From positions 124,001 to 188,000 of the forward strand of contig NZ_CANLQB010000005.1 of assembly GCF_947493125.1 (NCBI RefSeq): a DNA stretch of 64,000 nucleotides, written 5' to 3'. Of the stretch, positions 16,450 to 31,348 are shown one piece after another. This stretch comes from an uncultured Roseobacter sp. (lineage in GTDB: Bacteria > Pseudomonadota > Alphaproteobacteria > Rhodobacterales > Rhodobacteraceae). Both the position numbers and the translations under genes were made by a program. Each line of letters starts with the position of its first letter. Position 1 is the stretch's first letter. Below the pieces are notes generated by a model. The model saw only the letters and a program-made list of their open reading frames with translations, had not been told where the DNA came from and did no database searches.

Positions 16450-16509
16450 GTTACGGATTGACACATCGCGGCCTGTCATGACTGTTTGGTAACATGTCAA
16501 GGAAGCGAA

Positions 16510-17529
16510 ATGGTCAGAATACGGAACATGGAGGAATTTGCGACGCTGAGCGGTGTGTCGCGTCCGACGGTGTCGAAATATTTTCACGACCCGAGCAGTG
16601 TGCGGCCGAAGATCCGCGCCCAGATCGAGCGGGCGTTGGAGCAGTACGACTATCAGCCGAATATCTTTGCGATCAACCAGAACCGCAAACTGACCAAGAA
16701 CATCGGGATCGTGGTGCCCTATCTGGCCGATCCGTTCTTTGCGGAGATCGCGCGGAACCTGGAGCAGCGCTGCCTCGCCGCCGGGTTTCAGCCGACGTTG
16801 TATTCGTCTCATGGGCAGCCGGATCTGGAGGTCGGCATTCTGAGCAACCTGCGCCGGCTGAAGCCCGCGGGGGTGTTGCTGGCCCCGCTGGGGCGGGTGT
16901 CGAACCGTGCCGAGATCGAGAAGTTCTGCAAGGATGTGCCAACGGTGCTGTTTGACAGTGCTTTGGACGATGTGGGGCTGGCCTTCATCGGCTCGGACAA
17001 TCCGAACCTGGCGCTGCAGATCGTGGACTATCTGTGCCGCAGTGGCGAACCGCCGTGCTTCATGGAGATGAAGACCCCGGCGAACCCCAATGCCAACAAG
17101 CGGCGCGAGGCCTATCTGCAGGCGATGGCGCATTTCGGGCAGACACCCCAGATCGTGAAGATCGAGGGGATCGGCTGGGCGTTCGAAGAGATCGGCTACA
17201 CCTACGGGGGTGCGGCCCTGGCCTCCAACGCCTTCGCCACCAACACCATTCTGTGCAGCAATGACCGTCTGGCGATCGGGCTGCTGTCGGCCTGTTATGA
17301 GCAGCAGATCCGCGTCGGCATGACACCGGGCTGCGCGATCCGCGTTGCCGGACAGGACGATCACCCCTTCTCGCGCTTTACCTGTCCGCCGCTCACGACC
17401 GTGGCGCAGGACTACGAGTCGATCTCGGCGAAATCGCTGGAAATTCTGATGCAGGTGATCGACGGAGGCGCCGTCGATGCGGCCAAAACCCTGTTCGAGG
17501 GCCGGTTGGTGATGCGGCAGTCGGCCTGA
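16510..17529 (+). CDS. LacI-family transcriptional regulator of the polyol operon
   Basis: 339 residues. N-terminal LacI helix-turn-helix (MEEFATLSGVSRPTVSKYFH at about 6-25) and hinge, then a periplasmic-binding-like ligand domain (NIGIVVPYLADPFFAEIARN onward). Starting at ATG 16510 places AAGGAAG just upstream; eight upstream residues from 16486 were rejected. It is transcribed in the same direction as, and 92 bp before, the sugar-alcohol ABC operon, and shares an 11-bp promoter-proximal motif with it, so it probably controls both itself and the operon in response to a polyol. Confidence 0.88.
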   Translation: MVRIRNMEEFATLSGVSRPTVSKYFHDPSSVRPKIRAQIERALEQYDYQPNIFAINQNRKLTKNIGIVVPYLADPFFAEIARNLEQRCLAAGFQPTLYSSHGQPDLEVGILSNLRRLKPAGVLLAPLGRVSNRAEIEKFCKDVPTVLFDSALDDVGLAFIGSDNPNLALQIVDYLCRSGEPPCFMEMKTPANPNANKRREAYLQAMAHFGQTPQIVKIEGIGWAFEEIGYTYGGAALASNAFATNTILCSNDRLAIGLLSACYEQQIRVGMTPGCAIRVAGQDDHPFSRFTCPPLTTVAQDYESISAKSLEILMQVIDGGAVDAAKTLFEGRLVMRQSA

Positions 17530-17540
17530 CTTAATTTTGT

Positions 17541-17588
17541 CGCGCGTAAAATTTTTTGTTGACGCCCGAATTTTTAATCGGCTAGTCT
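17541..17588 (+). promoter_or_regulatory. Promoter and candidate operator of polyol ABC operon
   Basis: The CGCGCGTAAAA motif (17541-17551), embedded in an imperfect dyad TTTTGTCGCGCGTAAAA, is followed 8 bp later by TTGACG (-35, 17559-17564), an 18-bp spacer and TAGTCT (-10-like, 17583-17588). The arrangement mirrors the one in front of the LacI gene. Confidence 0.55.
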
Positions 17589-17621
17589 GGCTTGCATAAC
17601 ATCCAGCTAGGGAGGATTCGG

Positions 17622-18926
17622 ATGTCTATAAGAACCGCACTTGGTGCGGCGAGCGCCCTTGCCGTGCTCGCAGGCACAGCAGCTTTCGCCGACACCACGA
17701 TCACCATCGCCACCGTGAACAACGGCGACATGATCCGCATGCAGGGCTACACCGACAATTTCACCGAGCAGACCGGGATCGGCGTGGAGTGGGTCACGCT
17801 GGAAGAGAACGTCCTGCGTCAGCGCGTGACCACCGATATCACCACCAAGGGCGGTCAGTTCGATATCATGACCATCGGTATGTATGAGACGCCGATCTGG
17901 GGTGCCAACGGCTGGCTTGTGCCGCTGGACGATCTGTCCGCCGAGTACGACGTGGACGATCTTCTGCCCGCGATGGCCGGTGGCCTGAGCCATGAGGGCA
18001 CGCTTTATGCCGCGCCTTTCTACGGCGAAAGCTCCATGATCATGTACCGCACTGACCTGATGGAGAAGGCCGGGCTGGAAATGCCGGACGCGCCCACCTG
18101 GGAGTTCGTGCGGGAAGCCGCCGCGGCGATGACCGACCGCGACAATGAGATCAACGGCATCTGCCTGCGCGGCAAGGCGGGCTGGGGTGAAGGCGGGGCC
18201 TTCATCACGGCGATGTCAAACTCCTTCGGTGCACGCTGGTTCGATGAAAACTGGACGCCCCAGTTCGACACGCAGCCGTGGAAAGACACGCTGGAGTTCT
18301 TTGTCGGCATGATGAACGAGAGCGGCCCGACAGGCTATGCCACCAACGGGTTCAACGAGAACCTCAACCTGTTCCAGCAGGGCAAATGCGGCATGTGGAT
18401 CGACGCGACGGTTGCGGCCTCCTTTGTGACGAACCCGGACGACAGCACGGTGGCCGACAGCGTCGGATTTGCGCTGGCGCCTGACACCGGCTTGGGCAAA
18501 CGCTCGAACTGGCTCTGGGCCTGGGCTCTGGCCGTGCCGGCCGGCACGCAGAAAGAGGCTGAAGCCAAGCAGTTCATCGAATGGGCCACCTCGAAAGACT
18601 ACATCGAGCTGGTGGCGGCCAACGAAGGCTGGGCCAATGTGCCTCCGGGCGCGCGGAAGTCGCTGTACGAGAACCCCGAGTACCAGAAGGTGCCCTTCGC
18701 GCAGAAGACGCTGGATTCGATCCTGTCGGCAGACCCGAACGACTCCACGGTCGAGCCGACCCCCTATGTGGGCATCCAGTTCGCGGCCATTCCTGAATTT
18801 GCGGGCATTGCCACGCAGGTGAGCCAGGAATTCTCGGCGGTTTATGCTGGTCAGCAGACGGTCGATGAAGCGCTGGCCAAAGCGCAGGCGATCACGACCG
18901 AGGAAATGGAAGCGGCAGGCTACTAA
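17622..18926 (+). CDS. smoE: Polyol (sorbitol/mannitol) ABC transporter substrate-binding protein
   Basis: 434-residue extracellular solute-binding protein, family 1. Clear signal peptide (MSIRTALGAASALAVLAG...AFA), then a mature domain starting DTTITIATVNNGDMIRMQGY, as in SmoE-type polyol binding proteins. Typical segments include QFDIMTIGMYETPIWGANGW and GLSHEGTLYAAPFYGESSM. Excellent ribosome site GGGAGG ahead of ATG 17622. It is first in the operon with two permeases, an ATPase and polyol dehydrogenases, which supports a sugar-alcohol ligand. The smoE name rests on synteny and resemblance to the Rhodobacter operon. Confidence 0.87.
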   Translation: MSIRTALGAASALAVLAGTAAFADTTITIATVNNGDMIRMQGYTDNFTEQTGIGVEWVTLEENVLRQRVTTDITTKGGQFDIMTIGMYETPIWGANGWLVPLDDLSAEYDVDDLLPAMAGGLSHEGTLYAAPFYGESSMIMYRTDLMEKAGLEMPDAPTWEFVREAAAAMTDRDNEINGICLRGKAGWGEGGAFITAMSNSFGARWFDENWTPQFDTQPWKDTLEFFVGMMNESGPTGYATNGFNENLNLFQQGKCGMWIDATVAASFVTNPDDSTVADSVGFALAPDTGLGKRSNWLWAWALAVPAGTQKEAEAKQFIEWATSKDYIELVAANEGWANVPPGARKSLYENPEYQKVPFAQKTLDSILSADPNDSTVEPTPYVGIQFAAIPEFAGIATQVSQEFSAVYAGQQTVDEALAKAQAITTEEMEAAGY

Positions 18927-18939
18927 GCTTCTATTTCAC

Positions 18940-18967
18940 GCGGGCGGGCGGCCCGGCTGCCCCCCGC
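18940..18967 (+). terminator. Intra-operon GC hairpin after the binding-protein gene
   Basis: GCGGGCGGGC (18940-18949) pairs imperfectly with GCCCCCCGC (18959-18967). It sits in the 113-bp gap between binding protein and first permease. Such hairpins commonly protect the upstream mRNA or reduce read-through, giving more binding protein than permease. Confidence 0.45.
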
Positions 18968-19039
18968 AACACCCCTCTCTTCCATACGTCCCCGTCTTTT
19001 CCGACGGCTGCAACGACCTGACCAGAGGAGGCATGCCCG

Positions 19040-19906
19040 ATGGCGACCCAACACTCCCGATCCGCTGCACGCGTGATGATGGCCCCCGCGGTGATCCTGC
19101 TCCTCGGTTGGATGCTCGTGCCGCTGACGATGACGCTCTACTTCTCGTTCAAACGCTATCTGCCCCTGCGGGGCGGCGACCAGGGCTGGGTCGGGTTCGA
19201 GAACTACGTCCGTTTCGTGTCCTCCAGTGCGTTCTGGCCTGCGGTGCAAACCACGCTGCTGATTGTCGGCGGAGTCCTGTTGATCACGGTGGCGCTGGGG
19301 ATCTGCCTGGCGATGTTGCTGGATCAGCCGATGTGGGGGCAGGGGGTCGTGCGCATCCTGGTCATCGCCCCGTTCTTCGTGATGCCGACGGTGTCGGCGC
19401 TGGTGTGGAAGAACATGTTCATGGACCCGGTGAACGGTCTCTTTGCCCATCTGTGGCGGTTTTTCGGGGCTGAGCCGGTGTCCTGGCTGTCCGAGGCCTC
19501 GATGTCCTCGATTGTGATGATTGTCTCCTGGCAGTGGCTGCCCTTTGCGACGCTGATCCTTCTGACCGCGATCCAGTCGCTGGACAGTGAACAGCTGGAG
19601 GCCGCGGAGATGGATGGCGCGCCGGCGCACAAGCGTTTCTGGTTCATCATCCTGCCGCATTTGAGCCGCGCGATCACCATCGTGATCCTGATCCAGACGA
19701 TCTTTCTGCTGTCGATCTTCGCCGAGATCTTCGTGACGACCGGTGGCGCCTTCGGCACCCGCACGCTGACCTATCTGATCTTCCAGCGCGTGCTGGAAAG
19801 CCAGAACGTGGGGCTGGGCTCCGCCGGTGGGGTCTATGCGATCATTCTGGCCAATATCGTTGCCATCTTCCTGATGCGCATCGTCGGCAAAAACCTAGAC
19901 CGGTAG
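19040..19906 (+). CDS. smoF: Polyol ABC transporter permease (SmoF-like)
   Basis: 288-residue inner-membrane permease of the MalF/UgpA class with six predicted helices. The cytoplasmic EAA loop, which contacts the ATPase, reads EAAEMDGAPAHKRFWFIILP at about 190-210. Strong ribosome site AGAGGAGG 8 bp before ATG 19040. It is followed after 12 bp by the second permease, with which it should form the heterodimeric channel for the solute delivered by the binding protein. Confidence 0.88.
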   Translation: MATQHSRSAARVMMAPAVILLLGWMLVPLTMTLYFSFKRYLPLRGGDQGWVGFENYVRFVSSSAFWPAVQTTLLIVGGVLLITVALGICLAMLLDQPMWGQGVVRILVIAPFFVMPTVSALVWKNMFMDPVNGLFAHLWRFFGAEPVSWLSEASMSSIVMIVSWQWLPFATLILLTAIQSLDSEQLEAAEMDGAPAHKRFWFIILPHLSRAITIVILIQTIFLLSIFAEIFVTTGGAFGTRTLTYLIFQRVLESQNVGLGSAGGVYAIILANIVAIFLMRIVGKNLDR

Positions 19907-19918
19907 GGAGGAGCTGTC

Positions 19919-20749
19919 ATGGCACGCGCTGTCACCACACCCCGCAAAGTGATCAACACCACCGTGACCTGGGGGATTGGCCTGCTGATCTTCTTTCCGA
20001 TCCTCTGGACCATCCTGACCAGTTTCAAGACCGAGGCGCAGGCCATCGCAAGCCCGCCGATCTTTCTCGCCTTTGACTGGACGCTGGAAAACTACGCCGT
20101 CGTGCAGGAGCGCTCCAACTATATGCGGTTCCTGTGGAATTCGGTGATCATCGCCGGCGGGTCGACCATTCTGGGGATCATCATCGCGATCCCCGCCGCC
20201 TGGTCCATGGCCTTTGTGCCGTCCAAGCGCACCAAGGACATCCTGCTGTGGATGCTGTCCACCAAGATGCTGCCTGCGGTGGGCGTGCTCTACCCGATCT
20301 ACCTGCTGTGCATTCAGCTGGGATTGCTCGACAACCGGGCCGCGCTGGTGGTGATCCTGATGCTGATCAACCTGCCGATCATCGTCTGGATGCTCTATAC
20401 CTATTTCCGCGAGATCCCGGGGGAGATCCTCGAAGCGGCGCGGATGGATGGTGCCGGCCTGAAGGAAGAGCTGCTCTATATCCTGACGCCGATGGCGGTG
20501 CCGGGCATTGCCTCGACCCTGCTGCTCAACTTCATCCTGGCGTGGAACGAGGCCTTCTGGACGCTGAACCTCACGGCGGTGGATGCCGCACCGCTGACGG
20601 CCTTCATCGCCAGCTATTCGAGCCCCGAGGGTCTCTTCTTTGCCAAGCTGAGCGCCGCCTCGACGATGGCCATCGCGCCGATCCTGATCCTTGGCTGGTT
20701 CAGCCAGAAACAACTCGTCCGAGGTCTGACCTTTGGCGCCGTCAAGTAA
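19919..20749 (+). CDS. smoG: Polyol ABC transporter permease (SmoG-like)
   Basis: 276-residue inner-membrane permease of the MalG/UgpE class with six helices and the EAA loop EAARMDGAGLKEELLYILTP at about 177-196. Ribosome site GGGAGG upstream of the ATG. Twelve bp after smoF and 24 bp before the ATPase gene, in a tight transporter operon. Confidence 0.88.
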   Translation: MARAVTTPRKVINTTVTWGIGLLIFFPILWTILTSFKTEAQAIASPPIFLAFDWTLENYAVVQERSNYMRFLWNSVIIAGGSTILGIIIAIPAAWSMAFVPSKRTKDILLWMLSTKMLPAVGVLYPIYLLCIQLGLLDNRAALVVILMLINLPIIVWMLYTYFREIPGEILEAARMDGAGLKEELLYILTPMAVPGIASTLLLNFILAWNEAFWTLNLTAVDAAPLTAFIASYSSPEGLFFAKLSAASTMAIAPILILGWFSQKQLVRGLTFGAVK

Positions 20750-20773
20750 TCCAGTGAATGAGGGAGCCTGATC

Positions 20774-21774
<1,001 letters not shown>

Positions 21775-21778
<4 letters not shown>

Positions 21779-21966
21779 CGCGGCTGGCCGGACAGTCGGC
21801 TCTGATCACGGGTGGGGCGCGCGGGATCGGATTGGCCTTTTCCAAGGCCTATCTTGCCGAGGGCGCGCAGGTCGCGATTGGAGATATCGACCTAGGTCGC
21901 GCCGAGGCGGCAGAGTATATCGTCGCGCAGACCGACAATGTGGATGGCGGAAACTGGATGAGCTGA
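21775..21966 (+). pseudogene. smoS: Sorbitol dehydrogenase (SmoS-like), large in-frame internal deletion
   Basis: Only 63 residues remain. The first 45 or so are a perfect short-chain dehydrogenase start, with the NAD-binding glycine motif GGARGIG. The last 15 (YIVAQTDNVDGGNWMS) are the family's C-terminal end. About 190 middle residues, including the catalytic Ser-Tyr-Lys, are missing, yet the reading frame, the ATGA overlap with smoK and the one-base overlap with mtlK are kept. A normal SmoS is about 256 residues. The product cannot be an active dehydrogenase. An assembly collapse is possible but would have to be exactly in frame. Confidence 0.85.
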
Positions 21967-23450
21967 TGAACGAGATGTCTGAGACCGACCAACTGATCCC
22001 GCTTTCCAACGCGACGCTGAATGACTTGCCTGCCGCGATCCAGCGTCCGACCTACGACCGGTCTGCGCTGCGCGCCGGGATCGTTCACATCGGGCTCGGA
22101 AACTTCCACCGCGCGCATCAGGCGTGGTACCTGCATCGGCTGATGCAACAGGGCCTTGCGCAGGACTGGGCGATTGTCGGCGCAGGCGTGCGGTCGGGTG
22201 ACGCGCAGATGCGCGCGCGGCTCGAGGCGCAGGACCATCTGACCACCCTCATCGAGCTCGACCCGGAGGGTACACGTATCGAAGTCACGGGGGCGATGAT
22301 CGATTTCCTGCCCGTGGCGGAGGACAATGCCCCGCTGATCGCCTGCCTGTCGGACCCGGCCATCCGGATCGTTTCGCTGACCGTCACCGAAGGCGGCTAC
22401 TTCATTGCGCAGGACACAGGCGGCCCGGATCTGGACCATCCGGAGCTGTTGCATGACATTGCCCATCCGGCGACGCCTCGCACGGCATTCGGGGCGATCA
22501 TCGCCGGTCTGCGGGCGCGGCGCTTGGCGGGGCATGGGCCCTTCACCGTGCAGAGCTGTGACAATCTGCAGGGCAACGGCGATATCACGCGGGACCTGGT
22601 TGTCTCGCTGGCGCGGGTAATGGATCCGGCACTGGCCGACTGGATCGAGGCGGAGTGCGCCTTTCCGAACTCCATGGTCGACTGCATCGTTCCGGCGACG
22701 GGCCCGGATGAGCTGGCCCGGGTACGGGCCTCCGGGATCGACGACGCTGCCCCCGTCACCCATGAGAACTTTCGCCAATGGGTAATCGAGGATCACTTCT
22801 GTGCCGGGCGCCCGGACTGGGACCAGGTGGGCGCGGTGTTCACCGATGACGTGGTCCCCTACGAATCCATGAAGATCCGCATGTTGAACGCAGGTCATCA
22901 GCTGTTGGCCAATGCGGGGGAGCTTCTGTCGATTGCGACGATTGCGGATTGCATGGCGGATGCCGATATCGCGGCGTTCTTTGCTCAGGTCCAGCGGGCG
23001 GAAATCGCGCCGCATGTGACCGCGGTGGCCGGGATGACGGCGGAAGAGTACGTGACGCTGATCACGCGCCGTTTCGCAAATCCGCAAATCCGCGACACCA
23101 CCCGACGCGTGGCGTTCGACGGCCTGTCCCGTCACCGCGGGTTTCTGCATCCCATCATTCGCGATGCTCTGACGGCCGGGCATCGGGTGGAGGGTCTCGC
23201 CTTGGCAGAGGCGCTTTGGGCGCGGATGTGCGCCGGCCTCCGGGAGGACGGCAGTGAGATTGCGCCAAACGATCCCGAATGGGACGTTTTGCATGCGGCG
23301 GCGACAGAGGCCCGCACGGACCCCAGGGCGTGGCTCGCGCTCTACGCTGATCTGGCGGAGGATCCGCGCTTTTGCGCGCCCTTCGAGCAGGCGCTGCGCC
23401 GGGTCTGGCAGGATGGGACGCGGTCTGTCTTGCGCTCCTATGTGAGCTGA
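21966..23450 (+). CDS. mtlK: Mannitol 2-dehydrogenase
   Basis: 494-residue long-chain polyol dehydrogenase that oxidises D-mannitol to fructose (and related polyols) with NAD. Visible are the nucleotide-binding start IVHIGLGNFHRAHQAWYL, CDNLQGNG at about 190, the N-S-M-V-D segment before IVPATGP, and the active-site Lys in VPYESMKIRMLNAGHQL. It starts at ATG 21966, sharing one base with the stop of the deleted smoS. Last gene of the operon: the sugar kinase genes (xylB, mtlZ) found after mtlK in the Rhodobacter smo operon are absent. With smoS broken, this is the only intact dehydrogenase here. Confidence 0.9.
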   Translation: MNEMSETDQLIPLSNATLNDLPAAIQRPTYDRSALRAGIVHIGLGNFHRAHQAWYLHRLMQQGLAQDWAIVGAGVRSGDAQMRARLEAQDHLTTLIELDPEGTRIEVTGAMIDFLPVAEDNAPLIACLSDPAIRIVSLTVTEGGYFIAQDTGGPDLDHPELLHDIAHPATPRTAFGAIIAGLRARRLAGHGPFTVQSCDNLQGNGDITRDLVVSLARVMDPALADWIEAECAFPNSMVDCIVPATGPDELARVRASGIDDAAPVTHENFRQWVIEDHFCAGRPDWDQVGAVFTDDVVPYESMKIRMLNAGHQLLANAGELLSIATIADCMADADIAAFFAQVQRAEIAPHVTAVAGMTAEEYVTLITRRFANPQIRDTTRRVAFDGLSRHRGFLHPIIRDALTAGHRVEGLALAEALWARMCAGLREDGSEIAPNDPEWDVLHAAATEARTDPRAWLALYADLAEDPRFCAPFEQALRRVWQDGTRSVLRSYVS

Positions 23451-23610: not shown

Positions 23611-24348
23611 ATGTCGATTAATCTGCACTACACCCGAGAGATTCTGGAGGAGCTGAACTACGTCGCGACCTGGTTTCCGACGACCACGCTGGCCCCCGGA
23701 GAGGTCTGCGACATGCGCGGCGGGCAGCTCAAGCCTGTTGGATCTCTGGAGGACTTCGACATCACGTTCGAGACCGAGCCGGGCTCGGCCGAGAGCACCA
23801 TCGAGTACAAGTCGGCGGGCGCCGTTTCGATCAAGACCAAAGCGGCAGGCAGCGCCGAACTGCCCGGTTCGGCGTTGAAGGAGGCCGAGGCGGGGCTGCA
23901 TATCACCTTTGCGCGTGAAAACGCGATCTTGCTGACGCTGACAGGCTGTGAGGCGCGCCGGATCGCGCGTCTGCATCAGGTCGGACAGCAGGTGTTGGCG
24001 AAGCACAATGAAGGAGCGTGGCCCAAAGGATATGTTGTGGTCACCGAGGCCTTGACCTGTGGCGCCTCGACCATTCTGGTGGCCTCCAGCGACAATGCGG
24101 CGATTGATCTGTCGGCGAAAGGGGCCTTCGGGGCCATGGCGCTCACGCTCGCCAATGCCAATGCGGGTCTGGAGATGCGCACCGAAAGCAACATCGGGTT
24201 CCGCACCATTTCCAGCCCCGGGCTCACTCCATTGCTGCGCACCTCCGGTATTGTCCCGAGGTTCCTGAGGCCCGATGAGTTCCGCGGCGGTGCCGAGGAG
24301 GCGGATGTGGATTTTGCCGCCGTGAGCTATGACGATCTGGAAGAATGA
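23611..24348 (+). CDS. Unknown 245-aa beta-rich protein coupled to CHAT peptidase
   Basis: No family recognised with certainty. The 245-residue protein has no signal peptide. It contains repeated alternating hydrophobic strands, for example AILLTLTGCEARRIA, KGYVVVTEALTCGASTILVA and AIDLSAKGAFGAMALTLANA, then a Pro/Gly-rich and an acidic tail (ADVDFAAVSYDDLEE). Ribosome site AAGGA 10 bp before ATG 23611. Its stop overlaps the start of the 1397-residue TPR-CHAT gene by ATGA, so the two are translationally coupled. Size, beta-rich character and pairing with a caspase-fold peptidase fit a protease-controlled effector such as a pore former, but it lacks the N-terminal Cys typical of bacterial gasdermins. 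That role is inference. Confidence 0.75.
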   Translation: MSINLHYTREILEELNYVATWFPTTTLAPGEVCDMRGGQLKPVGSLEDFDITFETEPGSAESTIEYKSAGAVSIKTKAAGSAELPGSALKEAEAGLHITFARENAILLTLTGCEARRIARLHQVGQQVLAKHNEGAWPKGYVVVTEALTCGASTILVASSDNAAIDLSAKGAFGAMALTLANANAGLEMRTESNIGFRTISSPGLTPLLRTSGIVPRFLRPDEFRGGAEEADVDFAAVSYDDLEE

Positions 24349-27300
24349 GCCCGGGCGCGTCGGTCAAAGACGCGCTGGCGGCGGTTGGAGCGCTCCTCGG
24401 TCGGGGCAAGTTTGACGCGGCTGCGGAGCGGCTGACGTCCATTGATCCGGGAGATGATGCCGCAGCGCAGGCGCTGAAGCTGCGGCTGGAAGGCGCGATT
24501 GCCTATCGCAGGAACGACCTTGCGGTGGCCATAGACCTCCTCGCGCGCGGGATCGAGGGTGAACCGGACGGGAGCACGGAGGAGCTGGCCACCGCGCTCC
24601 GGGATTTGGCCAACGCGCATCAGGAGATGGGGCACGCGGACGCCGCCGCCGAGCACAGGCGCGCGGCGGTGGACAACCTTGTGGGGCGCCTGTCCATTTC
24701 GCCCGGCTGGGCCATCGAACTGGCAGCCGCGCTGTCGGGCGATTTGCGCCACAGCGGGGCGGAGGACCCGGAGGCCCCTTTGCTGCGCGTCGCCGAGGCG
24801 GCGCAGGGGCTGAGCGGGCAAGCGGCCGTGTCCGTGTTTGTCCGGCTGGCGTCCGGCTTTCTCGGTGCCGGGGCCGCCCCGCAGGTGGTGGCTGTGTTGA
24901 CGGACGCGTTGGAAAGAGTGCGGGCGATGGATCCACCGGGCCGCCGGGCTGCCGTGCCCGCGCTGCTGGAAGCCGTGGCCACCGTACAGCAGTTGGGACC
25001 AACCGATCTGGCGGATGCGCTTCTCAGCCTCGTGGAAGGCATGACCGACGATCTGTCGCCGGAGCAGCGACACGCGGCTCTGCAGTATCGGGCGGCGCAT
25101 CTGGCCATGATGGGCGATGCGGAGGCGCGTGTCGCTTTGGACCGTGTGATCACCCACGCGGAAGACGGCCTTCGCAGCGCAGAGGCGGCACGTGCGGCCC
25201 GCGCGACACTGGGGGAGTATCTGGCCAAGACGGGGGATGCCGAAGGAGCGGAGGAGGTCCTGCGGACCGCTCTCGAGGACGCGGACACGGCCGACCCGGT
25301 GACCATTGGCCGGATCGCGGCGGAGCTTGGCCTGCTCGCCGACAAGGCCTGGCGGTGGCGCGACGCCGCGGACCTGCACGGGCTGGCCTTGACCAAGCGC
25401 CGCGACGCTTTGGGGCACTGGCACCGGGCGACGAACAGCAGCCGCTATGAACTGGCCGAGATGAGCCGTCTTCTGGGGCGCAACGCCGAAGCCGAGCTGC
25501 ACTATCGCGATGCCATCCGGGTCGATGACCGGATTGGCGACGACGGTGGAGAATTCGGATCGAAGCTGCGCAACAATCTGGCCGAATTGCTGATCCAGAT
25601 GGGGCAGGGTGCGGCAGCGGATGTCTTGCTCGAGGAGGCGTTGGAGCGTCGCGTGGCGGCCTTTGGGTCTGACAGCGAAAGCGCCTGGCGCAGCCGGTCC
25701 AGCCGCGCCAACTGGCATTTGATGTTCGGTGATCCGCAGGCGGCGGCAGATCTTGCCGAGCAAGCCCTGGCCTTGCCGCAGTTCGAGGGGAGCGTTGCGT
25801 GGCACCTGCTGCAGGCCTCCGCGCTGCGGCGCCTGGGCCGGTTTGCCGAGGCCGAGCCGATACTCACACAGGTTTTCGACCAGATCCCCGTCGATGATCT
25901 GGAGCGGTATATCAACTGGGAAACATATCTCGATTTGACGATGGATCTGGCCTTGAGCCGCGCCGGCCTCGCCGACTGGCCGGGTGTGGTGGCGGTGCTG
26001 GCAAAGGCGTCGGAGGCGTTGATCCGCCGCGAGATCACCTTGCTGCAACATTCGTCAGCGGGTCAGGTGCTGCATTATGCGCGGCGGTGCCATGAGATCC
26101 TGTCGATCTGGATGGGAGCGGCGGTGAAGCTCGACCCGGAGATGCGCCGCACTGAGGCCTTTCTGGACCGTGCCACCAACCTGACCGAAACCGTGAAAGG
26201 TCTGCGGACACGGTACATGCGCCTGCGCCAGCCTGGGACCGGATATGTCGAAGACCTCGCACCACCGGATCGGCGCAGGCGCGATCAGGACCGGCGGGCG
26301 CACCTGGCAAAGCTTGATGCCGAACTGGCCGAGCTGGAGTTGGCTGGTGTGCCCCGGACGGATCGGGCCCATCTTGCGGTTCGGGCGATGATCGAGGAGG
26401 CTGAACGCAGTCTGGCCAGCACGATTCCATCCTGGAAGACCGCCTACAACTGGACGCATCTGGGCGCGGACACCCTCGGCTTGGAGATCCTGCGCATCGA
26501 AGGGATCGAGCCGGCGGGACAGCACGCGCCGCCGCTTTCGCAAGACCGTTATGTCGCGCTTCTGGTCGAGGGTGACGGTGATGCGACCCGGGTCGATCTG
26601 ATTGATTTCGGACTGGCGGATCCGATCGACACCGCCGTCACCGATCTAAGGGCGTCGCTGGTGAACGAGGCCTGGGGGGCGGGGCGCAAGCCCAGCTGGT
26701 GGCGGCTGTCCCGATTCCTCGGGCGCAAGCTCCTGGACCCTATTGCCGAGGCGCTGGCAAAGGCGGACCGACTCTTCGTGGCGCCCGATGGTCCGCTGGG
26801 TGCGCTGCCGTTCGAGATCCTGCGCCTGTCCGAGGGTGCCTATTTGGACGATGTCCTGAAGGTCTGCTATCTGCCGCGGCTTGCCGAAAGCGGGGGCTTC
26901 CGCCGACCGCTTCTGGCCGCGCAGCCGCCTCTGGTTCTGGGAGGCCCGGATTATGACCTCGAGGGTGCTTTTCGGGGGGCTCGTGGACTTATGGGCACCT
27001 TGGAACGGGAGCTGTCCGATGGTCTGAGCGAACAGCGGTTCGCCTCGCTGCCGCAGGCGGAGGCGGAGGGTCGCGCGGTGGCTGCGACCCTGGATGCGAC
27101 AGCGTTTTGCGGGCGTCTGGCGCTGGCCACCGTGCTGCAGGACACGCCTGCGCCCGAGATCCTGCATATCGCGACACATGGGTTCTGTTTGCCGCGCGCG
27201 GCGGCGGAGCGAGGCTTTGCGGCGACGCTCGGCAATGCGGTGGACCGGCGGATGATACTCTCGGACCCGATGCAGCGCAGTGGTCTGGCGCTTGCGGGCG

Positions 27301-28538
27301 CGAATGCGGTGCTGGATCAGCGGGCCCTGCCTGAGGAGGTCGGCACCGGTTTTCTCTACGCGGCGCAGATCCAGAGCCTCGATCTGCAGCGCACCGATCT
27401 GGTTTTTCTGGCGGCCTGCCGGTCGGGCCTCGGCGAATTTGAGGTCGGCGATGGAGCGCAGGGGTTGGGACGGGCGTTTCTGGCAGCGGGGTGCCGGTCG
27501 GTGGTGACCGCGCTCTGGGACATTCCGGACACGGCCTCTCGCAAGCTGGTGGAGCGGTTTTATCAGGAGGTCATCGCGGGTGTTCCGCGCCTCGATGCGT
27601 TGCGCGCGGCCCGTCAGGCTGTCCGAGCGGAGCATCCCAATGATCCGATCTACTGGGCCGGGCTGGTCTTGATCGGCAATCCGGGGCCGCTGGGACGGTG
27701 TTCAGCTACGGCAGGGCTGCATGTCGCCTCGGTTTCGATGTCGGAGTGGGACTTGCGCGGGACCGGTGACGGCCCTGACCTGGAGGCATTTGCAGAGCGT
27801 GTGGTGGCGGGCGAAAAGGTCAACTGGGCCGAACGCCCGGGAGGGCGTGTGATGCTGCTCGAACGGGCGTCGGCGAAGCCGGATCTGAAAGAGCGGGATC
27901 GGGTTTGGATCACCTCGAAGCGCGCGGATCTCTTGAACCGGCTCGGGGATCATGACGCGGCGATTGCCCTGTATAGCGAATTGAGTGAAGACCCGGAGGT
28001 TGCGGAGGATGCAGGCCTTTTCTACGCCTACAATGCGGCCAAGATCGCCCAGCAGAAAGGCGATTTTGCTCAGGCCCTTTCCGGCTACACCGCTGTTCTT
28101 GAACGCTGTGCCAAGCGGCCCGATCCGCGGGCAAGCCCGTTTCACCATGCGATGGTCAATCGGGGCACAGTCTTCATGGCAACAGGCCGGACCACGGAGG
28201 CCATGGCGGACTTTAGGGTCGTGATCGAGGACACTGCGGCACCTGTTGATCAGCGGTTCATGGCATATGGCAATCGCGCCGATGTGTTGACACGGACCGA
28301 TCCCGCTGCGGCCTTGGCCGATGTCGAGGCGGCGCTGGATCTGGATGTGGCGACGCCGGGGGAGCGGCGGCTGTGGCAGGCCAAGCGGATTTCACTTCTG
28401 ATCGCTGTGGCGGATGCGGCGGGGGGGCGGGCAGCGCTGCAGGCGCTGGAGGCCGAACTCGACGGTCTGCCGGACGATCCCGAAACACGCCGTGTGCGTG
28501 GCTTCCTTCAGGCGTTTCGGCGCGATTTGGACATGTAG
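24345..28538 (+). CDS. Giant TPR-CHAT-TPR cysteine peptidase
   Basis: 1397 residues. About 1-640 are TPR-like helical repeats, with alternating A/L-rich helix pairs such as AAADLAEQALALPQFEG. The CHAT (caspase HetF-associated) peptidase region spans about 770-1110 and keeps its catalytic pair: H945 in LHIATHGF and C1025 in VFLAACRSGLG, followed by SVVTALWDIPDTASRKLVER. A further TPR block closes the protein (about 1160-1397), unusual because CHAT is often C-terminal. It overlaps the unknown 245-aa gene by 4 bp. CHAT peptidases activate partner proteins by cleavage; the coupled upstream product is the obvious candidate substrate. The repeats probably bind a trigger or partner. Confidence 0.87.
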   Translation: MSPGASVKDALAAVGALLGRGKFDAAAERLTSIDPGDDAAAQALKLRLEGAIAYRRNDLAVAIDLLARGIEGEPDGSTEELATALRDLANAHQEMGHADAAAEHRRAAVDNLVGRLSISPGWAIELAAALSGDLRHSGAEDPEAPLLRVAEAAQGLSGQAAVSVFVRLASGFLGAGAAPQVVAVLTDALERVRAMDPPGRRAAVPALLEAVATVQQLGPTDLADALLSLVEGMTDDLSPEQRHAALQYRAAHLAMMGDAEARVALDRVITHAEDGLRSAEAARAARATLGEYLAKTGDAEGAEEVLRTALEDADTADPVTIGRIAAELGLLADKAWRWRDAADLHGLALTKRRDALGHWHRATNSSRYELAEMSRLLGRNAEAELHYRDAIRVDDRIGDDGGEFGSKLRNNLAELLIQMGQGAAADVLLEEALERRVAAFGSDSESAWRSRSSRANWHLMFGDPQAAADLAEQALALPQFEGSVAWHLLQASALRRLGRFAEAEPILTQVFDQIPVDDLERYINWETYLDLTMDLALSRAGLADWPGVVAVLAKASEALIRREITLLQHSSAGQVLHYARRCHEILSIWMGAAVKLDPEMRRTEAFLDRATNLTETVKGLRTRYMRLRQPGTGYVEDLAPPDRRRRDQDRRAHLAKLDAELAELELAGVPRTDRAHLAVRAMIEEAERSLASTIPSWKTAYNWTHLGADTLGLEILRIEGIEPAGQHAPPLSQDRYVALLVEGDGDATRVDLIDFGLADPIDTAVTDLRASLVNEAWGAGRKPSWWRLSRFLGRKLLDPIAEALAKADRLFVAPDGPLGALPFEILRLSEGAYLDDVLKVCYLPRLAESGGFRRPLLAAQPPLVLGGPDYDLEGAFRGARGLMGTLERELSDGLSEQRFASLPQAEAEGRAVAATLDATAFCGRLALATVLQDTPAPEILHIATHGFCLPRAAAERGFAATLGNAVDRRMILSDPMQRSGLALAGANAVLDQRALPEEVGTGFLYAAQIQSLDLQRTDLVFLAACRSGLGEFEVGDGAQGLGRAFLAAGCRSVVTALWDIPDTASRKLVERFYQEVIAGVPRLDALRAARQAVRAEHPNDPIYWAGLVLIGNPGPLGRCSATAGLHVASVSMSEWDLRGTGDGPDLEAFAERVVAGEKVNWAERPGGRVMLLERASAKPDLKERDRVWITSKRADLLNRLGDHDAAIALYSELSEDPEVAEDAGLFYAYNAAKIAQQKGDFAQALSGYTAVLERCAKRPDPRASPFHHAMVNRGTVFMATGRTTEAMADFRVVIEDTAAPVDQRFMAYGNRADVLTRTDPAAALADVEAALDLDVATPGERRLWQAKRISLLIAVADAAGGRAALQALEAELDGLPDDPETRRVRGFLQAFRRDLDM

Positions 28539-28542
28539 CGCG

Positions 28543-28569
28543 CGCTCCGGCGGCTCGTTGACCGGAGCG
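28543..28569 (+). terminator. Hairpin after CHAT gene
   Basis: CGCTCCGG-type stem (28543-28550) pairs with CCGGAGCG (28562-28569) around an 11-base loop, 4 bp after the CHAT stop codon. No T-tract. It probably ends or protects the two-gene transcript. Confidence 0.5.
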
Positions 28570-28972
28570 GGGTGAACACGATTCGTTATGGAGCGGCGTC
28601 GATGCGCTTGAAGGGCGGTCTTGCGATCTGCCATCCGCCGGACCTGACGCGTCGCACATCCACCTCAGTCGGTGGATCGACGGGAGGCGATGGTGCAGTG
28701 CGTGTCGACCTTTGGGGTTGGGGGACCGATGCCCGGTTTGCAACCTGAGAAAATCGCGTAACGCGCTGGCAAGAAGTTACATAATCCATGCTTCGGCTGA
28801 TCTTGTCGCAGCGATTTTCCATGCAAGACCCTGGCCTCACATAGCGTTCTCTTGGCGCAAATGTCGACGGCCAGCGCTGTCCCGAACTCCTTGGCATCGA
28901 CCTCCGCTCGGACCGCTGGCTTGAAAAAAGCGGGTTTTTGGGCTACAACCATGCCGCGTGTATTGGCGCGGT

Positions 28973-28998
28973 GGGCGTTTTTCCGCCCTCCCTTTTTG
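28973..28998 (+). terminator. Terminator-like hairpin with T run in leader of repeat-protein gene
   Basis: Stem GGGCG (28973-28977) with CGCCC (28984-28988), a 6-base loop of mostly T, then TCCCTTTTT. It is one of few hairpins in this window followed by a T run. It lies upstream of, and in the same direction as, the repeat-protein gene. Confidence 0.45.
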
Positions 28999-29054
28999 AG
29001 GCCCATTTTTATTTCAGCGCGATCCTGAGCGCATTTTTCAAGGGATGACATTTC

Positions 29055-30125
29055 ATGGCAATCAAGATTGATTCCGACACCGGCAATATCTCAGCGGGCG
29101 GTGACAACACCGATGGCGATCTGCTTCTCAACTCCAACAGTGGTCAGCGCCGGATCCATCTCGATGCGGGATCGGGCAATGCCTATCTCGGGGGCAATGG
29201 CGCCGATGGCGACCTGTTGCTGATGCCGTCGGGGGCCTCCAGCCAGTCGGGCTCCTCCGGGACCATTCATATGAGCGGTGACAGTGGCAACTACCGCGCC
29301 GGCGGCAACGGTGCCGACGGAGATGTGACGCTGCAATCCACCGAAGGCCAGAACCGCATCCGGCTCGATGGCGGAGGCGGCAATGCCTGGCTGGGCGGCA
29401 ATGGGGCGGACGGGGACCTTGTGCTCTTTGCGTCGGATGGCGACAACGCCACGCTGGCAGCATCAACGATCCACATGAACGGCGAGGAGGCCAATTACCG
29501 CGCCGGAGGCAACGGTGCGGATGGAGACATCACTCTGCAATCCACGGAAGGCGAGAACCGCATCCGCCTGGATGCCGGCGGCGGCAACATGTGGATCGGC
29601 GGAAATGGCGCGGATGGTGATATCGTTGTCTTTGCATCGACCGGCGACAATTCGACCTTGGCGAATGCGACCATCCATATCAATGGGGATGCGGGTGATA
29701 TCGTCATGCAGAACGCCGACTTCGCCGAGGAGTTTGATATCTGCGAAGCGTCACCGGCGGTAGAGCCGGGCGATGTGATGGTGATGGGCCGAAGCGGAGC
29801 GCTGGAGCCGTGTCGGTCGGCGTATGACGCCCGGGCTGTCGGTATCGTCTCCGGCGCGGGCGATTACCGGCCCGGTATCGTGCTGGACCGACAGGTCAGC
29901 GCGGGGATGCGCCTGCCCGTGGCGCTGGTGGGCAAGGTCTTCGTCAAGGCCGATGCCAGCCATGGCGCGATTGCGGTCGGCGACATGCTCACGACCTCGC
30001 CGACGTTCGGTCACGCGATGCGGGCCAGTGATCGCGCGCGGGCCTTTGGGGCGACGTTGGGCAAGGCGATGGCGCCGCTGGATGACGGAACGGGGATGAT
30101 CCCCGTTCTGGTCAACCTGCAGTAG
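29055..30125 (+). CDS. Tandem-repeat protein with tail-fibre-like C-terminal domain
   Basis: 356 residues without a signal peptide. Residues 1-215 are Gly/Asn/Asp-rich repeats built on AGGNGADGD-LLL, likely a beta-solenoid; two of the units are 68 residues apart and nearly identical in protein and DNA. Residues about 225-356 form the compact domain seen at the end of many bacterial surface and phage-tail-like proteins: EPGDVMVM, AVGIVSGAG, LVGKVFVKADASHG, VGDMLTTSPTFGHAM, LGKAMAPLDDGTGMIPVLV. It is first in a tight three-gene unit with a zinc protease and a HEAT protein. Role unknown; possibly structural or a display scaffold. Confidence 0.75.
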   Translation: MAIKIDSDTGNISAGGDNTDGDLLLNSNSGQRRIHLDAGSGNAYLGGNGADGDLLLMPSGASSQSGSSGTIHMSGDSGNYRAGGNGADGDVTLQSTEGQNRIRLDGGGGNAWLGGNGADGDLVLFASDGDNATLAASTIHMNGEEANYRAGGNGADGDITLQSTEGENRIRLDAGGGNMWIGGNGADGDIVVFASTGDNSTLANATIHINGDAGDIVMQNADFAEEFDICEASPAVEPGDVMVMGRSGALEPCRSAYDARAVGIVSGAGDYRPGIVLDRQVSAGMRLPVALVGKVFVKADASHGAIAVGDMLTTSPTFGHAMRASDRARAFGATLGKAMAPLDDGTGMIPVLVNLQ

Positions 30126-30134
30126 GGCCCGGCC

Positions 30135-30806
30135 ATGACTGCGAGCATTCGTAACGTGGCGAGCAGCTGTCTGGACAAGACCGGGCGCCTGTCGCTGCGC
30201 GAGGACATCCTTGGTGTCTACGCCAACGACAATCCTCAGAACCGATCCGTTCTGGCTCAGATGAACCGGATACAGACCGTACCTTTTGTCAAAATCGCTC
30301 TGGTGACCATCCAGGGCGCGAGCCCGCAGATCCAGCGTGATCTGGACAACGCCAATGCGGTCTGGGTCGGGAACTGCAATGTCTGGGTTTACCCCACCGA
30401 CAGCATTACGGTGAACGCGCCTGCGCTGGTGGCGCTGGCGCAGGATGACTGCAATGGCAGCGGACATTCGGTGAGTTCAGAGGAGGATCAGCTTTTCGAT
30501 CTGGGCCGCAATCTGGGGGCCAATATCGTCGCTTACTATATCCAGTCGGGCAGCGGTGCGGGATGTGCGGCGCATCCACCCGGGCGCCGGGGCTTCTGGG
30601 CCGATGACGGCGCCTCACCCTGGACTTTCATTCACGAGTTGACCCATGTGGTCGGGGACAATCCTCACATCGACTCCAATGACAGCTGCAATCTGGGCAA
30701 TCTCATGACCACCTGCGGGACGGCCAATATCAACGTGGCACTGCCCAATCTGACGAATAACCAGTGTGACCGCATCAATGGCGATGCCGACATCGAAAGC
30801 TGCTGA
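30135..30806 (+). CDS. Metzincin-like zinc metalloprotease
   Basis: 223 residues with no signal peptide. The zinc site reads HELTHVVGDNPH: H167, E168 (base), H171, G174 and H178. Classical metzincins have HExxHxxGxxH; here one extra residue separates Gly and the third His. A Met at 191 (GNLMTTCG) could be the Met-turn. Preceding text WADDGASPWTFIHE is rich in aromatics. Six or more Cys suggest disulfides or additional metal. It starts 9 bp after the repeat-protein gene and is followed after 11 bp by the HEAT gene. Likely an endopeptidase; target unknown. Confidence 0.75.
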   Translation: MTASIRNVASSCLDKTGRLSLREDILGVYANDNPQNRSVLAQMNRIQTVPFVKIALVTIQGASPQIQRDLDNANAVWVGNCNVWVYPTDSITVNAPALVALAQDDCNGSGHSVSSEEDQLFDLGRNLGANIVAYYIQSGSGAGCAAHPPGRRGFWADDGASPWTFIHELTHVVGDNPHIDSNDSCNLGNLMTTCGTANINVALPNLTNNQCDRINGDADIESC

Positions 30807-30817
30807 AGGAGGCGAGA

Positions 30818-31282
30818 ATGGCAGAGATTTCAGACCGCACGGAACGCCTGCTCGTCACCGATTGCGGGCGCGCGATATCGGAACTGGCGCAGGGTATGAC
30901 CCGAGAGGATCTGGCGCATCTTGCGGAGGTCGTCGCGGACCCGCAGGAGACGCCCGAGCGCGTCGGACGGGCGAGCATGATCCTGGGACGGTCGGGGTAC
31001 AAACCGGCACTGGAGCCGATCCTCGCCTCTCTCAAACGCTTGAGTGGCAAGCCGCGCCTTCAGGCTGCGGAAGCGTTGGGTCGGCTGGGCGGGGCGAAGG
31101 CGCGGGATGCCCTGGCGCAGCTGGCCCGGGACGAGGACGCCCAGGTGCGGAAATTCGCGACGCTGGGGTTGGCACAGATTGCGGATAAGAAGACGCAGAC
31201 CCTGTTGCAGTCGATTGCCGAGCGTGACAGCGAAGCGTTTATTCGCGAAATCGCAGGTCGGCATCTGGCGCCCGACCGGTAG
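30818..31282 (+). CDS. HEAT-repeat protein
   Basis: 154 residues, entirely alpha-helical in appearance. At least three HEAT-like units are visible: KPALEPILASLKRLSGKPRL, QAAEALGRLGGAKARDALAQ and LARDEDAQVRKFATLGLAQI. Such proteins are scaffolds or adaptors. Strong ribosome site AGGAGG before the ATG, 11 bp after the metzincin-like gene. Last gene of the block; a structured hairpin follows. It might bind or regulate the adjacent protease. Confidence 0.8.
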   Translation: MAEISDRTERLLVTDCGRAISELAQGMTREDLAHLAEVVADPQETPERVGRASMILGRSGYKPALEPILASLKRLSGKPRLQAAEALGRLGGAKARDALAQLARDEDAQVRKFATLGLAQIADKKTQTLLQSIAERDSEAFIREIAGRHLAPDR

Positions 31283-31288
31283 CGGCAC

Positions 31289-31348
31289 GATCCGGCTTAG
31301 TCACTCTGATCCTGCAGTGAACCCTTTGGATTTGAAGGGTGCCGGATC
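31289..31348 (+). terminator. Two-part hairpin ending the CHAT block
   Basis: Outer stem GATCCGGC (31289-31296) with GCCGGATC (31341-31348), inner stem ACCCTT (31321-31326) with AAGGGT (31335-31340). The right arms are contiguous and the left arms are separated by a 24-base bulge. It lies between the HEAT gene and the convergent aldo/keto reductase gene, so it may serve both. Confidence 0.5.

What the first reader, a model, noticed from the sequence alone, without database searches (positions are those of the whole stretch)
23611..31282. CHAT peptidase block that I cannot match to a named system
Five adjacent same-strand genes: unknown 245-aa beta-rich protein, 1397-aa TPR-CHAT-TPR peptidase, tandem-repeat protein with tail-fibre-like C-terminus, metzincin-like protease and HEAT protein. 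Seen: intact CHAT His945/Cys1025, intact zinc motif, ATGA coupling of the first two, hairpins at 28543 and 31289. Inferred: a protease-gated response system with a second protease module; whether the two sub-blocks act together is open because a 516-bp gap divides them.
Basis: partly seen in the sequence, partly recalled or inferred. Interest (0 to 1): 0.8.

Follow-up and report, generated by a model that had tools for sequence, protein, structure and literature searches.

The report
Bacterial gasdermin with CHAT protease
The first two genes look like a bacterial version of the pyroptosis pair, a gasdermin pore protein and the caspase-like protease that would unlock it to kill the cell, while the three genes after them appear to be a separate, still unexplained cassette.

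Summary
The five genes are real, but they are two modules. Module A is 23611-28538. The "unknown beta-rich" 245-aa protein is most likely a divergent bacterial gasdermin (bGSDM). A profile of it and 11 homologues has one hit up to E=10 among 177,635 PDB sequences, bacterial gasdermin 7n50 (E=1.4e-4). Of 23 distinct homologue loci, 20 have a CHAT gene within 4 kb. For the 18 Streptomyces loci, 16 are observed, 0.06 expected. All 20 CHAT domains keep the catalytic His and Cys. Inferred mechanism: TPR-CHAT cuts off the gasdermin's short C-terminal peptide, and pores then kill the cell, probably to abort phage infection. bGSDM-CHAT operons are known, so this is a new, divergent member. Module B is 29055-31282 (solenoid/G2-like protein, metzincin-like protein, HEAT). 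It recurs in the same order in Rhodobacteraceae SC52 and rearranged in Streptomyces avidinii, and not near module A in the other loci examined. Weak points: AlphaFold models are poor (pLDDT 40 and 37), 20 of 22 family members have no PADLOC bGSDM hit, a remote Streptomyces subgroup shows no gasdermin hit, and the metzincin's third zinc ligand is displaced.

The parts
23611..24348 (+). Gasdermin-like pore protein (bGSDM, divergent), 245 aa, with a variable linker and a C-terminal peptide (...DFAAVSYDDLEE) similar to that of some homologues
   Evidence: Profile hits to PDB 7n50; PADLOC bGSDM E=0.0072; CHAT neighbours; alignments A2, A7
24345..28538 (+). TPR-CHAT-TPR caspase-like protease, 1397 aa, His945/Cys1025; ATGA overlap with gene 1
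   Evidence: Pfam CHAT 185 bits at 789-1112, TPR; catalytic residues; only CHAT match in the 4.83-Mb genome
28952..28988 (+). T-tailed hairpins in the 516-bp gap, possible terminator between the modules; number not above chance
29055..30125 (+). Module B: repeat (probable beta-solenoid, by eye) protein with a C-terminal domain weakly like Peptidase_G2 / tail-fibre domains
   Evidence: Repeats visible; C-terminal domain in 11 plasmid records; weak PF11962 hit on homologue P0017, E=0.0096, below cut-off
30135..30806 (+). Module B: metzincin-like metallopeptidase relative, HExxH at residue 167, third ligand displaced
   Evidence: no Pfam hit of its own; counterpart P0021 Reprolysin_3 E=2.9e-4, just below cut-off
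30818..31282 (+). Module B: small HEAT-repeat protein
   Evidence: PF13646 E=1.5e-11; HEAT gene follows the metzincin in Streptomyces avidinii, Spirosoma and Rhodobacteraceae SC52

Best explanation
Genes 1-2 form a bacterial gasdermin system. The gasdermin is held inactive by its short C-terminal peptide. On a trigger, presumably phage infection sensed through the TPR arms of the CHAT protein, the CHAT protease (His945/Cys1025) cuts the variable linker before the C-terminal peptide. The freed gasdermin assembles into pores in the cell's own membrane and the cell dies before the invader spreads. Genes 3-5 are an independent cassette that happens to lie next to it. Shown here: gene structure, catalytic residues, homologue-CHAT linkage, profile match to a bacterial gasdermin, separate occurrence of the two modules in the other loci examined. 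Inferred: gasdermin fold, cleavage, pore, trigger, phage defence.
For: (a) The four profiles that contain P0001 (overlapping sets, so not independent) hit PDB bacterial gasdermin 7n50 first, over about 150 collinear residues: A2 E=0.0078, A5 1.9e-4 (62), A7 0.0036 and sole hit (78), A11 1.4e-4 and sole hit of 177,635 (144). (b) PADLOC's only family for P0001 is bGSDM, residues 11-119 against 9-120 of the model, E=0.0072. (c) Linkage: 16 of 18 Streptomyces-genus matches have a CHAT domain within 4 kb, expected 0.06; with the window and four plasmid loci, 20 of 23 have a CHAT gene within 4 kb. G000 and three of the four plasmids hold one CHAT each, and it is this neighbour. (d) His and Cys intact in 20 of 20 of these CHAT domains. 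(e) Mesorhizobium's homologue has, 1 kb away on the other strand, a Peptidase_C14-FGE fusion; PMC9612521 (passages) lists caspase-like C14/CHAT and FGS genes in bGSDM operons. (f) The last residues are alike in the window, Embleya, NRRL S-244 and L032 (VSYDDLEE, VDYEDFS, VDYDHFA, LTYEDLGV) after a linker of variable length; other members differ. (g) Foldseek with the weak model of P0001 ranks four gasdermins 1-4 of 96.
Against: No single-sequence match of P0001 to a gasdermin in Pfam or PDB. The PADLOC hit is weak: only 2 of 22 family members have it, best E=0.0032; searched over the genome it is E=0.197, and that search rang in 3 of 14 control genomes at E<=1. AlphaFold models had pLDDT 40 and 37, built on two rows only. 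Best Foldseek E is 0.026 with TM below 0.2 for ranks 1-4, and the model of homologue P0016 gave no gasdermin among the 50 of 195 hits listed. The profile of nine remote Streptomyces members (A12) found no gasdermin. No cysteine in the first 12 residues in 22 of 22 rows. Gemmatirosa's homologue has no CHAT near it (the plasmid's CHAT matches lie over 270 kb away), and two of 18 Streptomyces matches, the two weakest, have none within 4 kb. The window's other genes were not searched for defence or mobile-element families, so a defence-island setting is untested.
Confidence: 0.82

Rival explanations
1. The 245-aa protein is a CHAT substrate or effector of another beta-rich fold (another pore-former or a signalling protein), and the gasdermin likeness is remote or convergent.
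For: All gasdermin matches are weak one by one; no confident fold; second model matches no gasdermin in the list shown; 20 of 22 members without a PADLOC bGSDM hit; no lipidation cysteine.
Against: The first or only PDB hit of four overlapping profiles is a gasdermin in collinear register; C14-FGE and CHAT neighbours are of the kinds reported for bGSDM operons.
Confidence: 0.13
2. All five genes act as one system: gasdermin-CHAT plus a second, metzincin-based arm with its own scaffold.
For: Same strand, adjacent; Streptomyces avidinii carries both modules, although on two different plasmids.
Against: No module B protein found at the 22 distinct other module A places, and no module A protein at the 10 distinct module B places, within the flanks fetched; 516-bp gap with terminator-like hairpins.
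Confidence: 0.06
3. The TPR-CHAT protein belongs to a type III-E CRISPR Craspase-like system and the 245-aa protein is its substrate.
For: TPR-CHAT architecture is shared in name with Craspase (PMC9935389, search listing only).
Against: None of the five proteins has a Cas domain in Pfam; I did not search the genome for Cas7-11.
Confidence: 0.02

Closest known systems
Bacterial gasdermin (bGSDM)-protease systems (Johnson et al. 2022, cited in PMC9612521; not read)
   Same: About 250-aa protein with no large C-terminal domain, next to a caspase-like protease gene; CHAT and C14 named among the bGSDM partners (PMC9612521 figure legend, passages).
   Different: No Pfam match and weak in PADLOC; no cysteine in the first 12 residues in 22 of 22 family rows, whereas the majority of bGSDMs are lipidated at an N-terminal cysteine.
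Fungal gasdermin with TPR-bearing CHAT protease, Podospora anserina (PMC12881547, passages)
   Same: Two-gene cluster of a gasdermin and a TPR-CHAT protease; [quoted passage not shown]
   Different: Eukaryotic allorecognition; here a bacterial gene pair with overlapping ends and TPR on both sides of CHAT.
Type III-E CRISPR Craspase TPR-CHAT (PMC9935389, PMC9729208, search listing only)
   Same: TPR and CHAT in one protein.
   Different: Partner is a Cas7-11 nuclease; here the partner is gasdermin-like.
Peptidase_G2 / phage neck-appendage type C-terminal domains (gene 3; the neck-appendage link is recalled)
   Same: Weak PF11962 hit of a gene-3 homologue, E=0.0096, below cut-off.
   Different: No hit for P0003 itself. 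Its C-terminal domain is in 11 plasmid records; the nine read show varied neighbouring genes.

Membership tests
Bacterial gasdermin (bGSDM) | Sequence homology to known bGSDMs | tested here: met
   Profile A11 hits 7n50 only, E=1.4e-4; A5 1.9e-4 (62); A7 0.0036 (78); A2 0.0078 (50); PADLOC 0.0072 for P0001 (12) but only 2 of 22 members (79). Remote subgroup A12 negative (145).
Bacterial gasdermin (bGSDM) | Gasdermin N-domain fold | tested here: inconclusive
   pLDDT 40 and 37; gasdermins ranks 1-4 for one model, best E 0.026; none in the 50 of 195 listed for the other.
Bacterial gasdermin (bGSDM) | About 250 aa, no large inhibitory C-terminal domain | tested here: met
   245 aa; 22 family rows 244-276 aa, some starts uncertain.
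Bacterial gasdermin (bGSDM) | Short inhibitory C-terminal peptide removed by the protease | not testable with these tools
   Anatomy fits: variable linker, similar last residues in P0001, P0006, P0016, L032; other members differ.
Bacterial gasdermin (bGSDM) | Gene next to an activating protease gene | tested here: met
   CHAT gene within 4 kb in 20 of 23 distinct loci.
Bacterial gasdermin (bGSDM) | N-terminal lipidated cysteine (majority of bGSDMs, not all) | tested here: not met
   0 of 22 rows have Cys in the first 12 residues; L042 has one at 13, and start codons of several Streptomyces rows are guesses. Not a defining feature, since only a majority have it.
Bacterial gasdermin (bGSDM) | Pore formation, cell death, phage defence | not testable with these tools
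   Needs the bench.
CHAT peptidase | CHAT domain with catalytic His and Cys | tested here: met
   PF12770 185 bits; His945, Cys1025 (120); 20 of 20 domains intact, the window's included (139).
Metzincin peptidase (gene 4) | HExxHxxGxxH/D and Met-turn (recalled) | tested here: inconclusive
   HExxHxxG present, third His one residue late; LMT follows as a possible Met-turn; no Pfam hit for P0004 (11), counterpart P0021 Reprolysin_3 2.9e-4, just below cut-off (123).
Type III-E Craspase | Cas7-11 (gRAMP) partner | not tested
   No Cas domain among the five proteins; genome not searched.

The most novel reading that the evidence does not exclude
The 245-aa protein founds a separate, lipidation-free lineage of bacterial gasdermins, spread over at least Alphaproteobacteria (Mesorhizobium), Actinomycetota and Gemmatimonadota and mostly wired to CHAT proteases, that current defence-finding models overlook. 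Beside it lies an undescribed cross-phylum cassette in which a solenoid/G2-like protein travels with exchangeable enzymes, here a metzincin and a HEAT protein.
Probability: 0.4. Interest if true: 0.68.

Novelty: new member of a known kind. Interest (0 to 1): 0.52.

Why it matters
A 2024 review counts at least 50 bacterial gasdermins (PMC10989679, passages). A divergent group with 18 matches in 16 of 295 Streptomyces-genus genomes (the two weakest are a broken fragment and an E=3e-4 match) suggests that the bacterial repertoire is under-counted. It would also offer natural TPR-CHAT/gasdermin pairs, the bacterial counterpart of a fungal pair, in which to ask how CHAT proteases are triggered and whether lipidation is needed for pores. 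Module B gives a defined, recurring three-gene set, for which I found no known role, to test.

Tried and rejected
Single-sequence searches of P0001 in Pfam, NCBIfam, PHROGs and PDB found nothing usable. The first genome-contig scan with P0001 found no relative, and the second, with A3, found one. Phage records and five viral-contig scans found none. PADLOC bGSDM over 398 genomes of the window's phylum gave nothing at E<=0.001, nor did its controls, so that answer is uninformative. A fragment of 7n50 found no plasmid relative. Two weak P0001 matches in the order sample (G182, G129; E about 0.006, fragments, one with stops) were not counted as homologues. The profile searches scored only the best 7 or 9 candidates of a genome, so their counts are lower bounds. 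The Streptomyces fragment G891 (L047) was left out of alignment A7 because it is broken, but is kept in the 18-locus denominator. One-system reading of all five genes: rejected. Empty-site test: in 13 of the 18 same-genus relatives found with the aldo/keto reductase, about 11-12 kb beyond it holds neither the block nor the upstream transport genes, apart from one 34% ABC-ATPase match in L085, so the insertion boundary could not be drawn. One search read the minus-strand loci on the wrong strand; one search replaced it. Of the 11 records with gene 3's C-terminal domain I read nine, not the two Leptospira ones. Literature: listings (24 of 24 papers shown; 12 of 38; 15 of 39; 20 of 23), plus passages of three reviews, showed nothing that describes this group; one search was too loose to tell (no listed paper held bGSDM). 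For module B, one search listed nothing that describes it (10 of 63 shown). Only open-licence papers are held; Wein 2025 was not held, and my look-up of Johnson 2022 failed on a search-term error and was not repeated, so neither was read.
Full report
What is there. The five ORFs exist at the coordinates given. Genes 1 and 2 overlap by ATGA. Gene 2 has a strong CHAT domain (E=2.4e-54) at residues 789-1112 with TPR before and after it, His945 and Cys1025, and is the only CHAT match in the 4.83-Mb genome. Gene 5 is a HEAT protein. Gene 4 carries HExxH, but its third histidine is one residue later than in the canonical metzincin motif, so 'intact' is too strong. Of the two hairpins, only the one near 31289 beats shuffles clearly.

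What gene 1 is. Alone it matches nothing in Pfam, NCBIfam or PHROGs, and in PADLOC only bGSDM, weakly, E=0.0072. Plasmid searches gave homologues in Embleya (33%, E=5e-30) and Mesorhizobium (E=1e-6; two partial hits at E=0.5 and 2 were left aside), then, with the Embleya protein as query, Gemmatirosa and Streptomyces avidinii. A contig scan gave Streptomyces NRRL S-244. A profile search gave 18 matches in 16 of 295 genomes of that genus. The four profiles that contain P0001 hit bacterial gasdermin 7n50 first each time: E=0.0078 (5 rows), 1.9e-4 (6 rows), 0.0036 (22 rows) and 1.4e-4 (12 rows). In the last two it is the only hit up to E=10. The sets overlap, so these are not independent. The nine-row remote subgroup A12 gave no gasdermin, and only 2 of 22 members have a PADLOC bGSDM hit.

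Structure. I could build only two-row alignments for AlphaFold, and both models are poor (pLDDT 40.0, pTM 0.39; 37.3, 0.36). Foldseek on the first ranks the GSDMD pore, two bacterial gasdermins and GSDMA3 at 1-4 of 96, best E=0.026 and TM below 0.2. Foldseek on the second lists no gasdermin among the 50 shown of 195. I count structure as inconclusive.

Neighbours. Sixteen of the 18 Streptomyces-genus matches have a CHAT domain 42-2,746 bp away. From CHAT numbers and rounded genome sizes, 0.06 of 18 would be expected by chance. The two exceptions are the weakest matches, a broken fragment (G891) and an E=3e-4 match (G702). Embleya, S. avidinii and Mesorhizobium have CHAT genes 0.2, 0.2 and 2.5 kb away, each with the only CHAT match on its plasmid; in Mesorhizobium the CHAT domain itself lies at the far end of its gene, on the other strand. 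Together with the window that is 20 of 23 distinct loci. Gemmatirosa is the third exception: its plasmid's CHAT matches are over 270 kb away, and the ORF just upstream looked to me like a TIR domain plus a transglutaminase-like domain, but Pfam found nothing in it. NRRL S-244 has an overlapping three-gene set gasdermin-TPR-CHAT. In all 20 CHAT domains the His and Cys columns are intact. Mesorhizobium has in addition a Peptidase_C14-FGE fusion about 1 kb away; C14/CHAT caspases and FGS genes are listed for bGSDM operons in PMC9612521 (passages).

How it probably works. In bGSDMs a peptide of about 20 residues keeps the pore domain off, and the neighbouring protease removes it (PMC9612521, PMC10989679, passages). 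Here the last residues are alike in the window, Embleya, NRRL S-244 and L032, while the stretch before them varies in length; other members end differently. I infer cleavage of this stretch by CHAT, pore formation in the host's own membrane and cell death, most likely as abortive infection. A TPR-bearing CHAT protease is reported to activate a gasdermin in Podospora anserina (PMC12881547, passages). The trigger is unknown; the TPR arms are the natural place for sensing.

What is unusual. None of 22 family rows has a cysteine in its first 12 residues (L042 has one at 13), whereas the majority of bGSDMs are lipidated at an N-terminal cysteine. The start codons of several Streptomyces rows are uncertain, so this needs checking. 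The family is rare near the window: in 292 order genomes only the genome itself, apart from two E~0.006 fragments, and in 385 class genomes only the genome itself, with at most seven candidates scored per genome in the rows shown.

Genes 3-5. The C-terminal domain of gene 3 is found in 11 plasmid records of several phyla, of which I read nine. In Rhodobacteraceae SC52 the order solenoid/G2-like, metzincin-like, HEAT is the same as here; its metzincin was recognised by eye and by a Reprolysin_3 match just below cut-off, not by a P0004 hit. In S. avidinii the order is metzincin, HEAT, solenoid. Spirosoma has metzincin and HEAT, with no solenoid protein found in the locus. Paraburkholderia has the solenoid protein and, by motif only, an HExxHxxG protein. 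In the other six records read, no metzincin or HEAT relative was found beside gene 3's homologue. No module B protein was found in 23 module A loci (22 distinct places), and no module A protein in 11 module B loci (10 distinct), at E<=1e-3 within the flanks fetched. P0004 itself has no match in the other 272 order genomes at E<=1e-4. So genes 3-5 look like a cassette of their own. Its role is open; a scaffold that carries exchangeable enzymes is my guess.

Setting. In 13 same-genus relatives, of 18 found, the DNA beyond the conserved aldo/keto reductase lacks the block, so it lies in a variable place. ARAGORN found no tRNA in the window, and G+C is unremarkable (0.62-0.67 over the block). I did not search the window's other genes for defence or mobile families.

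Verdict. The finding is real and nameable: most likely a divergent bacterial gasdermin-CHAT pair, a new member of a known kind, beside a separate cassette of unknown function.

Noticed in passing
29055-31282; L076:2981-6225; L007:7794-9613: Three-gene cassette (solenoid/G2-like, metzincin-like, HEAT) shared with Rhodobacteraceae SC52 and Streptomyces avidinii, with partial sets in Spirosoma and, by motif only, Paraburkholderia.
   Followed up: partly
L007:8957-9613: S. avidinii plasmid: the gene-3 homologue is not in the gene table used here; a hypothetical gene is called on the other strand over it.
   Followed up: no
L069, L071-L074, L077: Homologues of gene 3's C-terminal domain in Hymenobacter, Streptomyces, Rhodococcus, Acaryochloris and Runella plasmids have other genes downstream, no metzincin or HEAT relative, as if cargo were exchanged.
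   Followed up: partly
L006:9394-10965: Peptidase_C14-FGE fusion near the Mesorhizobium gasdermin homologue, giving that locus two candidate proteases.
   Followed up: partly
L010:8411-9949: Gemmatirosa: ORF ending 30 bp upstream of the gasdermin homologue looks like TIR plus transglutaminase-like domain by eye; no Pfam hit.
   Followed up: partly
29319-29456 (P0003 residues 89-134): Weak PADLOC match to the candidate defence family PDC-S05 (E=4.5e-4), possibly only because of the repeats.
   Followed up: no
16486-23450: Upstream same-strand genes read by eye as a sugar/polyol ABC transporter and a mannitol-dehydrogenase-like enzyme; in the 13 same-genus relatives read they are not beside the aldo/keto reductase.
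   Followed up: partly
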